Shown: piece by piece, positions 31,717 to 44,340 of the stretch
Numbering within the stretch: the stretch's first letter is position 1
How the letters are laid out: the number at the start of each line of letters is the position of its first letter
Source of the DNA: Ruoffia tabacinasalis
Lineage (GTDB): Bacteria; Bacillota; Bacilli; Lactobacillales; Aerococcaceae
Direction of reading: 5' to 3'
NCBI RefSeq assembly: GCF_005864045.1
Contig: NZ_VBSP01000007.1
Coordinates: forward strand, 1 to 64,000
DNA length: 64,000 nucleotides
Notes under the pieces: generated by a model
Databases searched by the model: none
Told to the model about the DNA's origin: nothing
Seen by the model: only the letters and a program-made list of their open reading frames with translations
Made by a program: the position numbers and the translations under genes

Positions 31717-34359
31717 ATGACGGAATTAATTGAAAAAGAAGTTATTGGAAATGTTAATTACATGATTAATGGTTTAGTAGAAAAAGGTTTGGTTGCTTTA
31801 GAGGAATTCGATCATTTTAATCAAGAGCAAATTGATCACATTGTAGCGAAAGCTTCAGTTGCAGCTTTAGATCAACATGGTACTTTAGCAAGACATGCGG
31901 TTGAAGAAACTGGCCGTGGTGTATTTGAAGACAAGGCAACAAAGAACTTATTTGCTTGTGAGCACGTTGTAAATTACATGCGAAATATGAAGACTGTCGG
32001 TGTTATCAGTGATGATGAAGTGACGGGGATCACAGAAATTGCTGAACCTGTTGGAGTTATTTGCGCCATCACTCCGACAACGAATCCGACGTCGACAACT
32101 ATTTTCAAAGCGCTCATCGCATTAAAAACTCGTAACCCAATCATTTTTTCATTTCACCCGGCAGCACTTGAGTCATCAGCTCACGCTGCTCAAATCGTTC
32201 GAGATGCAGCGATTGAAGCAGGTGCACCAGAAAACTGTGTACAGTGGATTACAGAACCATCGTTAGATGCAACGAATGCATTAATGAATCACGATGGGGT
32301 TGCGACAATCTTAGCCACTGGTGGAAATGCCATGGTTAAATCAGCTTATTCATGTGGTAAGCCAGCGTTAGGAGTTGGGGCAGGGAATGTGCCAGCTTAC
32401 ATTGAAAAGACAGCAAACGTTAAGCAAGCAGCTTATGACATCATATTAAGTAAATCATTCGATAACGGAATGGTATGTGCTTCTGAACAAGCCGCAATTG
32501 TTGATAAAGAAATCTATAAAGAATTTAAAGATGAATTAGTAAGCTATCATGCTTATATCGTAAATTCAAAAGAGAAAGCACTATTAGAGGAATTTTGTTT
32601 CGGTTCTAAAGCATTCAGTGAAAACTGTGCTGGCGCAAAATTAAATAATGAAATTGTTGGGAAACCAGCGACATGGATTGCAGAACAAGCAGGTTTCACC
32701 GTTCCGGAAGAAACAAATATTCTAGTAGCAGAGGTGTCAGAAGTTGGACCAAACGAACCATTAACGCGCGAAAAACTATCTCCAGTCTTAGCCTTATTGA
32801 AATCAGAAACAACTGAAGATGGAATTCAAAAAGCTGCACAAATGGTTGAGTTCTTTGGATTAGGTCACTCAGCTGCGATTCATACACAAAATCAAGAATT
32901 AGCAAATGAATTCGGCCGTCAAGTTAAAGCCATTCGAGTTATTTGGAACTCTCCTTCAACATTCGGGGGAATCGGAGATGTATACAATGCTTTCATCCCA
33001 TCATTAACTCTAGGTTGCGGATCATACGGACGCAACTCAGTTGGTGGAAACGTCGGAGCATTGAATTTACTTAACATTAAAACAGTTGGGAGACGACGCA
33101 ATAACATGCAATGGTTTAAAGTACCTTCAAAAATCTATTTCGAACGTGACTCAATCCAATATTTAAAAACAATGGCTGATGTTGAACGTGTCATGATTAT
33201 TACGGATGAATCAATGATGAAACTCGGCTTTACTCAAAGAATTATCGACCAACTTGAGGCGCGCCAAAACAAAGTAAATTACCAAATCTTCCATAACATT
33301 GAGCCAGATCCAGATATTACAACTGTTAGAAGTGGAGCTGAAGCGATGGCTCAATTCCAACCCGATACAATTATAGCCCTAGGTGGTGGATCTGTTATGG
33401 ATGCGGCTAAAGTCATGTGGTTATTCTACGAACAACCAGAAGTAGACTTTAGAGATTTAGTTCAAAAATTCCTAGACATTCGTAAAAGAGCAGTTAAGTT
33501 CCCAGAACTTGGGTCTAAAGCGAAGTATGTAGGTATTCCAACGACATCAGGAACAGGATCTGAAGTGACACCATTTGCGGTTATCTCTGATAAAAAAAAT
33601 AATATGAAATACCCATTAGCGGACTATTCATTACTACCAACAGTCGCAATTGTAGATCCTGCTTTAGTTGAGACTGTACCAGATTTTGTTACAGCTGATA
33701 CAGGGATGGACGTGTTAACACACGCAATCGAAGCGTATGTATCAGTGATGGCTAACGACTTTACTGATGGACTGGCTTTACAAGCAATTAAGATTGTATT
33801 CGAAAACTTAGAAGCTTCAGTAAAATATAATGATCCAGAAGCACGTGAAAGAATGCATAACGCTTCAACTATGGCGGGTATGGCATTTGGTAATGCCTTC
33901 TTAGGAATTAACCACTCAATGGCTCATAAGATTGGTGGAGTTTTCCATACAGTTCACGGTCGAACAAATGCGATTTTACTTCCATTCGTTATTCGCTATA
34001 ACGGAACCCGACCAGCGAAACAGGCGAACTGGCCAAAATACAATTACTACAAAGCAGATGTAAAATACCAAGACATCGCTAAATTAATCGGACTTGATGC
34101 AAAAACTCCAGAAGAAGGAGTAAAAAACTTAGCACAAGCTGTGTTCGAACTTGGAGAACGTGTTGGAATTCAAATGAGTCTAAAAGACCAGGGCGTTGAT
34201 GAATCTGCCTTCATGGATAAAACAGAAGATATCGCCTACTTAGCCTTTGAGGACCAGTGTACACCAGTGAATCCGCGCTTAGCTTTAGTAAATGAAATGC
34301 AAGAAATCCTTGAAGATGCATATTATGGATATAAAGAAAGACAAGCAAACTACAATTAA
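31717..34359 (+). CDS. adhE: Bifunctional acetaldehyde-CoA/alcohol dehydrogenase AdhE
   Basis: 880 residues. The N-terminal half is a CoA-acylating aldehyde dehydrogenase with the catalytic Cys in FDNGMVCASEQA (near 252); the C-terminal half is an iron-dependent alcohol dehydrogenase with GGGSVMDAAKVMW (near 560) and metal ligands in MDVLTHAIEAY, NHSMAHKIGG and HTVHGRTNA. It reduces acetyl-CoA to ethanol in two steps, regenerating NAD+ and forming spirosomes in other bacteria. It complements the upstream PflB acetyl-CoA supply. AAGGGGAGC precedes the ATG. A Rex-like site is upstream and a perfect palindromic terminator downstream. Confidence 0.97.
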   Translation: MTELIEKEVIGNVNYMINGLVEKGLVALEEFDHFNQEQIDHIVAKASVAALDQHGTLARHAVEETGRGVFEDKATKNLFACEHVVNYMRNMKTVGVISDDEVTGITEIAEPVGVICAITPTTNPTSTTIFKALIALKTRNPIIFSFHPAALESSAHAAQIVRDAAIEAGAPENCVQWITEPSLDATNALMNHDGVATILATGGNAMVKSAYSCGKPALGVGAGNVPAYIEKTANVKQAAYDIILSKSFDNGMVCASEQAAIVDKEIYKEFKDELVSYHAYIVNSKEKALLEEFCFGSKAFSENCAGAKLNNEIVGKPATWIAEQAGFTVPEETNILVAEVSEVGPNEPLTREKLSPVLALLKSETTEDGIQKAAQMVEFFGLGHSAAIHTQNQELANEFGRQVKAIRVIWNSPSTFGGIGDVYNAFIPSLTLGCGSYGRNSVGGNVGALNLLNIKTVGRRRNNMQWFKVPSKIYFERDSIQYLKTMADVERVMIITDESMMKLGFTQRIIDQLEARQNKVNYQIFHNIEPDPDITTVRSGAEAMAQFQPDTIIALGGGSVMDAAKVMWLFYEQPEVDFRDLVQKFLDIRKRAVKFPELGSKAKYVGIPTTSGTGSEVTPFAVISDKKNNMKYPLADYSLLPTVAIVDPALVETVPDFVTADTGMDVLTHAIEAYVSVMANDFTDGLALQAIKIVFENLEASVKYNDPEARERMHNASTMAGMAFGNAFLGINHSMAHKIGGVFHTVHGRTNAILLPFVIRYNGTRPAKQANWPKYNYYKADVKYQDIAKLIGLDAKTPEEGVKNLAQAVFELGERVGIQMSLKDQGVDESAFMDKTEDIAYLAFEDQCTPVNPRLALVNEMQEILEDAYYGYKERQANYN

Positions 34360-34407
34360 TAGTATCCGACGCATCAAGTAATACCTAAATTTGATCCCCT
34401 TTTATAC

Positions 34408-34450
34408 ACGTATATGCCTTACTTGCGCAAGTAAGGCATATACGTTTTTT
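34408..34450 (+). terminator. Terminator of adhE
   Basis: A perfect palindrome at 34408-34445, centred on CTTGCGCAAG with 17-bp arms, followed by six T. Confidence 0.9.
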
Positions 34451-34467
34451 GATTTTGAGTTGTACCT

Positions 34468-34593
34468 AGCTAGAAGAATAAAAATAAATTGTTCTAGCTG
34501 AGGTGATTAACTGGAAGAATAAATACCAATTGTTCCAACTGAGGTGCTTAAGTGGAAGAATATAAACTAATTCTTCCACTTGTTGAGGTAAGC
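34468..34593. repeat. Three tandem 41-bp hairpin units with compensatory changes
   Basis: Units start at 34468, 34509 and 34550 (the last is 3 nt longer). Each is an inverted repeat around an A/T loop followed by a GAGGTRMTT-type linker. Outer arms differ but keep pairing: AGCTAGAA/TTCTAGCT in unit 1, TGGAA/TTCCA in unit 2, AAGTGGAAGAAT/ATTCTTCCACTT in unit 3. No promoter or ORF is evident. It occupies the gap between adhE and the HhH protein; the rest of that gap, to 34696, shows nothing else. Confidence 0.7.
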
Positions 34594-34696
34594 TTATTTA
34601 CGCTTATCTTTGAATTCAGGCATTTTCTCCTTTTAGTATGGGCTTATATATATTAAGATAGTGATATAAAGTGAAGAAAATGAAGGAGAGGGTATT

Positions 34697-35290
34697 ATGT
34701 CACACGGTTTACCTAATATTGGAAAAGCTGCTACCAAAGCACTTCAAACTATTGATGTCACACAACTTGAGGAAGTGGCTGCTTTTAGTAAAGATGAATT
34801 ATTAAAGCTACATGGAATGGGACAAAAGTCGATCAACATATTAGAATCTGCCTTAACTGAAAGTAATTTAACTTTTAGTGACGCTGAAGCACATCCATAT
34901 AAGCCAGATTTTTTATTGTTAGGTGATTTAAGTTGTGACAATGCGCCGAAAAGACGTGTTATTAGAGACTTTGTCGTAGGACTTTTTGTTGGAAAGCAAT
35001 CTAATCTAGAGGAAACACTTAATCCAGCTGTAGAAACGGAAATTAACGGCGACCAAACAATAAATGGGATTGATGAATTAATCACTTATTTTGATAAAAA
35101 AGATATACAGTTAAGTAGTTTAAACTTACTGAGTATTTTATCCCATGGGAAATATGGAGCAGCGGATGGTGTTATTATTGCAAAACCAGGACAGAGAATA
35201 CATTTTGCTTCATTTTATACATTTGAAAATACAAAAAAAGAAGCTTTAATTAAAGCAATTAGATTTTATATGATTGAAGAAGTTGAATAA
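34697..35290 (+). CDS. Helix-hairpin-helix protein with a SnoaL/NTF2-like C-terminus
   Basis: 197 residues. The first 60 residues form a compact helix-hairpin-helix domain (LPNIGKAATKAL and LLKLHGMGQKSINILESAL), similar to the C-terminal domain of RNA polymerase alpha and TfoX-type DNA-binding modules. The rest (about 70-197: RRVIRDFVVGLFVGKQSNLE, then a beta-rich part ending HFASFYTFENTKKEALIKAI) looks like an NTF2/SnoaL-like fold. The combination suggests DNA contact by the first part; no enzyme residues are evident. AAGGAGAGGG precedes the ATG. Function unknown. Confidence 0.65.
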   Translation: MSHGLPNIGKAATKALQTIDVTQLEEVAAFSKDELLKLHGMGQKSINILESALTESNLTFSDAEAHPYKPDFLLLGDLSCDNAPKRRVIRDFVVGLFVGKQSNLEETLNPAVETEINGDQTINGIDELITYFDKKDIQLSSLNLLSILSHGKYGAADGVIIAKPGQRIHFASFYTFENTKKEALIKAIRFYMIEEVE

Positions 35291-43939: not shown

Positions 43940-44184
43940 TAAACCTGCATTCGAATTCAATTCGAGTCCTAGATTACGACTAAACACGCATTCGAAAAAA
44001 ATCCGAGTGCTAGATTCCGGCTAAACGTGCATTTGAATTCAATTCGAGTGCTCGATTCCGGCTAAACACGTATTCGAAAAAAATCCGAGTCCTAGATTAC
44101 GACTAAACACGCATTCGAAAAAAATCCGAGTGCTCGATTCCGGCTAAACACGCATTCGAAAAAATCCGAGTACTCGATTCCAGC
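43940..44184. repeat. Six tandem 41-bp repeats
   Basis: Units begin at 43940, 43981, 44022, 44063, 44104 and 44145 (the last is 40 bp). Each reads TAAACNYGYATTYGA, an A-rich or AATTCAATT centre, then TCGAGTSC and a GATTMCGRC end. GCATTCG can pair with CGAGTGC in each unit. Units 1 and 4 share GTCC with ATTACGAC, units 2, 3 and 5 share GTGC with ATTCCGGC, giving a 3-unit higher-order pattern. 41 is not a multiple of three and all frames contain stops, so the array is not coding. Confidence 0.85.
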
Positions 44185-44340
44185 TATATACTGGTCCTAT
44201 AAACGTGGACAACTAGAGACATGTCCGATTCATTCGTGGACTAAGTTCATTTCTGTCATTATCATCGTAGTCAGAGTTTTATTGCACAAAAAAATATCAT
44301 CTCCAATCCTTTCACATCGCAGTTACTTACAATTGTAAAT
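44185..44340. other. Gap between the repeat array and the nrdD control region
   Basis: About 155 bp without ORF, repeat or convincing hairpin. Confidence 0.5.

What the first reader, a model, noticed from the sequence alone, without database searches (positions are those of the whole stretch)
34468..34593. Tandem 41-bp hairpins with compensatory base changes after adhE
Three units each fold into a hairpin whose arms differ between units yet remain complementary (AGCTAGAA/TTCTAGCT; TGGAA/TTCCA; AAGTGGAAGAAT/ATTCTTCCACTT). Covariation within an array implies selection for the pairing rather than the sequence. They lie after the adhE terminator and carry no ORF. I know of no described element of this form.
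Basis: seen in the sequence. Interest (0 to 1): 0.62.

Follow-up and report, generated by a model that had tools for sequence, protein, structure and literature searches.

The report
Evenly spaced palindrome arrays between genes
The three hairpins after adhE belong to a widespread class of short tandem palindromes in the gaps between genes of Ruoffia and two related genera; about 30 unrelated sequence families all repeat every 40-43 bases (about four turns of the DNA helix), a regularity that no paper I found describes.

Summary
The three 41-bp hairpin units at 34467-34589 are real, non-coding, and lie after the adhE terminator. The claim that covariation shows selection for pairing fails: over 36 distinct units, pairing and covariation do not exceed shuffles, the central pair is mismatched in 29 of 36, and G·T and A·C one-sided changes are equally common.

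What is there is larger than the finding. The same unit forms arrays at other intergenic sites in Ruoffia, and moved with adhE into two genomes of another genus. A second, unrelated 41-bp array lies in this window (43940-44186). In 2.4 Mb sampled, 57 of 65 intergenic tandem repeats (30 of 36 unrelated sequence families, from three Aerococcaceae genera apart from that transferred copy) have a period of 40-43 bp, usually with a palindrome as the unit. They are enriched between convergent genes and mostly lie beyond terminators. Unit number changes in whole units (2, 3, 5, 5 at adhE).

Most likely these are DNA-level extragenic palindrome arrays, comparable to REP/BIME or STAR but without their tags, motif or transposase. 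The spacing suggests side-by-side occupancy on one face of the helix; binding partner and function are inferred. A functionless slippage satellite is the main rival.

The parts
34408..34445 (+). adhE intrinsic terminator (17-pair stem plus T tail), upstream boundary of the array
34467..34507 (+). unit 1 of 41 nt; hairpin 34467-34500 (13-nt arms, 8-nt loop)
34508..34548 (+). unit 2; hairpin 34508-34541, three stem mismatches
34549..34589 (+). unit 3; hairpin 34549-34582, perfect 12-bp stem
43940..44186 (+). second array of the same class but unrelated sequence (GCATTCGAA..TTCGAGTGC), 6 units of 41 nt with an 82-nt higher-order repeat, after a glyoxalase gene and its terminator

Best explanation
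The three hairpins are one locus of a class of extragenic tandem palindrome arrays. Shown: many unrelated sequence families share one architecture, an imperfect palindrome repeated head to tail every 40-43 bp; arrays sit in gene-end gaps, favour convergent pairs, mostly lie outside transcripts, grow and shrink by whole units, and keep their arms more constant than loops and linkers. Inferred: they work as double-stranded DNA rather than RNA; the fixed centre-to-centre distance of about four helical turns puts successive palindromes on the same face of the helix, so that a palindrome- or cruciform-recognising protein (a nucleoid or topology protein, in the manner of gyrase at E. coli BIMEs) can occupy them side by side at gene boundaries. 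Unit number changes by slippage or unequal recombination between units. The protein partner and the function are not shown.
For: 57 of 65 intergenic tandem repeats (period 25 or more) have period 40-43; 30 of 36 unrelated families do. Palindrome span varies (5th-95th percentile 23-39 nt) with little relation to period (rho 0.24, p 0.07), and dyad symmetry exceeds shuffles (38 of 57 arrays p<0.05; combined p 3e-33). Arms vary less than loops and linkers: 0.129 vs 0.348 and 0.257, 39 of 40 arrays, 0 of 5000 rotations. One-sided G.T and A.C changes are equal: 58 vs 59 overall, 16 vs 16 in codirectional gaps, so no RNA-strand signature. 21 of 51 arrays are convergent against 16% of gene pairs, p 2e-5. 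40 of 59 gene-end sides have a terminator between gene and array. Whole-unit copy change at adhE: 3, 2, 5, 5, although adhE of two of these is 99-100% identical over 466 bp to the window.
Against: No binding protein identified; different families share no sequence, so one sequence-specific protein cannot read them all. Function untested. Arm conservation can partly reflect recent duplication and templated correction between arms. The sample is partly biased to stretches with known hits, genes were called crudely, and G001 lacks the adhE array, so that array is not essential. Some arrays (for example L099, L118, L180:19109) have weak or no dyad signal. TRF's own fit can be off by one base in the period.
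Confidence: 0.45

Rival explanations
1. Functionless satellites: replication slippage and templated correction at chance palindromes create and renew tandem units in unconstrained gaps beyond terminators, with a polymerase- or repair-imposed unit size near 41 bp.
For: Rapid whole-unit turnover with near-identical flanks; arms reshuffled between units; location in gaps outside transcripts; absence of the array in G001; no covariation.
Against: No slippage mechanism known to me gives one unit size for unrelated sequences; arm conservation over loops; enrichment between convergent genes beyond gap availability.
Confidence: 0.33
2. RNA hairpins: transcribed 3' elements that protect mRNA ends, back up terminators, or are processed.
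For: Strong predicted RNA folds; gene 3' location and, in the arrays of the GGAAGAAT family read one by one, the unit strand follows the upstream gene. Hairpin clusters have been proposed to terminate transcription (PMC8355165).
Against: No U tract in the array; arrays lie beyond terminators in 40 of 59 cases; no G.U preference on the sense strand; no compensatory excess; no reason for a fixed 41-bp period.
Confidence: 0.12
3. Non-autonomous mobile palindromes of the REP type moved by a RAYT (Y1) transposase.
For: Dispersed palindromic units at many extragenic sites.
Against: No Y1_Tnp match in any of the three Ruoffia genomes while the control search rings in 5 genomes; no GTAG or CGTC tag in the two families of this window; head-to-tail arrays.
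Confidence: 0.04
4. Sites of a tyrosine-type recombinase: the GGAAGAAT unit has 13-bp arms around an 8-bp centre, the dimensions of loxP and FRT (dimensions from my own knowledge).
For: 13-8-13 geometry; unit loss and gain in whole units.
Against: Other families have quite different arm and loop lengths; the central 8 bp vary between neighbouring units, which site-specific recombination would not tolerate.
Confidence: 0.03

Closest known systems
REP / BIME (GTAG- and CGTC-tagged palindromes; PMC3733652)
   Same: Short extragenic palindromes, several types per genome, mainly downstream of genes in unidirectional and convergent gaps; proposed DNA role through gyrase
   Different: No GTAG or CGTC tag in the two families in this window, no RAYT-type transposase in the genomes, strictly head-to-tail, fixed 40-43 bp period shared by unrelated sequences
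STAR elements of staphylococci (PMC3532100)
   Same: Interspersed intergenic direct repeats whose unit number varies by locus and lineage; function unknown
   Different: STAR has a 14-bp GC-rich motif with 40-44 bp spacers, so a period near 54-58; the motif is absent here and one sequence family is involved
Tandem repeats of archaeal Borg elements (PMC9879509)
   Same: Independently arising, fast-evolving intergenic tandem repeats
   Different: Borg units are perfect repeats of varied length (the intergenic example there is 20 nt) and many are in ORFs; palindromy is not general
CRISPR arrays
   Same: Regularly spaced, partly palindromic repeats
   Different: Here linkers repeat too, so there are no unique spacers; the one CRISPR-like array in the sample (period 61, L198) stands apart

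Membership tests
REP/BIME | Unpaired GTAG or CGTC tag beside the palindrome | tested here: not met
   Absent from consensus units of both window families; not checked systematically in all 36 families
REP/BIME | Cognate RAYT (Y1) transposase | tested here: not met
   No PF01797 match in G000-G002
REP/BIME | Extragenic, convergent or unidirectional gaps | tested here: met
   21 convergent, 24 codirectional, 6 divergent
REP/BIME | Gyrase or other protein binding | not testable with these tools
   needs ChIP
STAR | 14-bp motif T(G/A/T)TGTTG(G/T)GGCCC(C/A) or its core | tested here: not met
   Core pattern: one 1-mismatch hit in the window, outside the arrays and no more than chance
Intrinsic terminator | Hairpin followed by U tract | tested here: not met
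   Only the adhE terminator at 34408-34445 qualifies
Structured RNA family | Covariation above control | tested here: not met
Known Rfam family | Match above gathering score | tested here: not met
   (34300-34800)
CRISPR | Unique spacers between repeats | tested here: not met
   Linkers repeat with the unit

The most novel reading that the evidence does not exclude
A clade of Aerococcaceae carries a system that makes or maintains palindrome arrays by architecture rather than sequence: any palindrome can serve provided that dyads recur every four helical turns, read by a structure-specific protein that organises or insulates gene ends, or written by an enzyme with a built-in 41-bp ruler.
Probability: 0.25. 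Interest if true: 0.85.

Novelty: new variant of a known kind. Interest (0 to 1): 0.6.

Why it matters
Extragenic palindromes in bacteria are normally defined by one conserved sequence. Here the shared feature is spacing, across families with no sequence in common and across genera. That points to a structural rule (a DNA-length ruler or phased occupancy) that can be tested directly, and such fast-changing arrays give natural series of unit number at fixed loci.

Tried and rejected
Covariation as proof of pairing: rejected. REP with RAYT: no Y1 transposase. STAR motif: absent. Redundant terminators: no U tract. Rfam: nothing above gathering. Plasmid and phage homologues: none. My first collection patterns were mis-spaced by one base (their zeros are uninformative; the viral scan was not repeated); the corrected one named Ruoffia halotolerans. 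Candidate family members outside Ruoffia: one single hit in G011 (L050), probably chance.

Full report
OBSERVATION. The window holds three head-to-tail units of 41 nt at 34467-34589. Each has a dyad: hairpins 34467-34500, 34508-34541 and 34549-34582, dyad centres exactly 41 bp apart. Folding is far better than dinucleotide shuffles, though the middle unit has three stem mismatches. The array follows the adhE terminator at 34408-34445 and precedes a gene at 34697; no ORF crosses the gap. The window belongs to a genus with three genomes held (G000, G001, G002); contig lengths identify G002 as Ruoffia halotolerans INB8.

THE SAME UNIT ELSEWHERE. DNA and covariance-model searches find arrays of this unit at other intergenic sites in the own genome (after polA, near a tautomerase gene, near a PTS gene, after an aminotransferase gene; gene names read from translations by eye) and at corresponding places in G002 and partly G001. 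Outside Ruoffia, arrays of the unit turn up only in two genomes of another genus, G055 and G057 (76 family genomes; 295 genomes of the order), and there only at adhE. There adhE is 99-100% identical over 466 bp to the window and the downstream gene is truncated, so the locus was transferred with its array. Yet the arrays differ: 123 bp (3 units) in the window, 82 (2) in G002, 204 and 205 (5) in G055 and G057, with recognisable first and last units and changed inner units. In some units one arm is replaced and not the other. G001 has no array at adhE.

TEST OF COVARIATION. On 36 distinct units, 81.8% of stem cells pair against 82.5% in shuffles; covariation score and two-sided changes are at chance; the central pair is unpaired in 29 of 36. 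Over 40 arrays of all families, two-sided changes number 23 against 18.8 expected, 5 of them complementary. One-sided changes giving G.T and A.C on the sense strand are equal, 58 and 59, and 16 and 16 in codirectional gaps.

A LARGER CLASS. The window has a second 41-bp array, 43940-44186, with unrelated sequence, found only in Ruoffia among 76 family genomes. Another unrelated 41-bp family lies beside a degenerate copy of the first in G001. I therefore sampled stretches of up to 20 kb from the three Ruoffia genomes and from 20 others, about 2.4 Mb in all with the window. Of 65 intergenic tandem repeats of period 25 or more, 57 have period 40-43 (40: 8, 41: 38, 42: 7, 43: 4); coding repeats mostly have codon-multiple periods. 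Clustering the units gives 36 sequence families, 30 of them at 40-43 bp, from Ruoffia and two other genera of the family (G013, G020). The other genera sampled showed none, apart from the transferred adhE array. One repeat of period 61 in G020 looks like a true CRISPR and serves as a positive control. Dyad symmetry exceeds shuffles in 38 of 57 arrays at p<0.05; the palindrome span varies widely while the period does not. Arms vary less than loops and linkers in 39 of 40 arrays, and none of 5000 rotations of the arm mask does as well. Part of this contrast could come from templated correction between arms.

CONTEXT. 21 of 51 arrays lie between convergent genes against 16% of gene pairs (p 2e-5); divergent gaps hold 6. 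In 40 of 59 cases an intrinsic terminator lies between the gene end and the array. In G001 the arrays are unevenly spread: none in 13 evenly placed stretches of contig 1, which includes the GC-skew switch expected of the terminus, and many on contig 2.

MECHANISM. The constant centre-to-centre distance of about four helical turns for unrelated sequences, indifference to the G.U strand, and the position outside transcripts point to double-stranded DNA. I commit to phased palindromic sites at gene ends, occupied side by side by a structure-recognising protein, with unit number changing by slippage or unequal exchange. The last clause is supported by the adhE comparison; occupancy and function are inference. 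The main rival is a functionless satellite with an unexplained preferred size.

COMPARISON. REP/BIME is closest in position and palindromy, but the tags were not found in the two window families and the transposase is absent from the genomes (PMC3733652). STAR resembles it in lability but has another motif and period (PMC3532100). Literature searches found no account of this class; the library is open-access only, so absence is weak evidence.

LIMITS.

Noticed in passing
window 43940-44186: Six-unit 41-bp palindrome array of unrelated sequence with alternating unit types (82-bp higher-order repeat); about 3.2 kb around it are 96% identical to G001 whereas adhE is only 79% identical, which suggests a recombined segment.
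   Followed up: partly
L048, L049 (G057, G055): Ruoffia-type adhE with its array in two genomes of another genus, ending in a truncated downstream gene: horizontal transfer of the adhE end region.
   Followed up: partly
G001 contigs C1 and C2: Arrays are absent from evenly sampled stretches of contig 1, around the likely terminus, and frequent on contig 2, which also has higher G+C.
   Followed up: partly
L124:18490-20000 (G057): Palindrome-containing tandem repeats with period 62-63, and in L209:1413-1767 (G013) period 31; these are near 6 and 3 helical turns, so other multiples may exist.
   Followed up: no
window 34697-35290: 197-aa protein after the array with a sub-threshold match to the RNA polymerase alpha C-terminal domain (helix-hairpin-helix type); function unclear.
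   Followed up: no
L119:5266-5566 (G000 C17): Tandem repeat of about 70 bp made of two different hairpins of about 35 bp.
   Followed up: no
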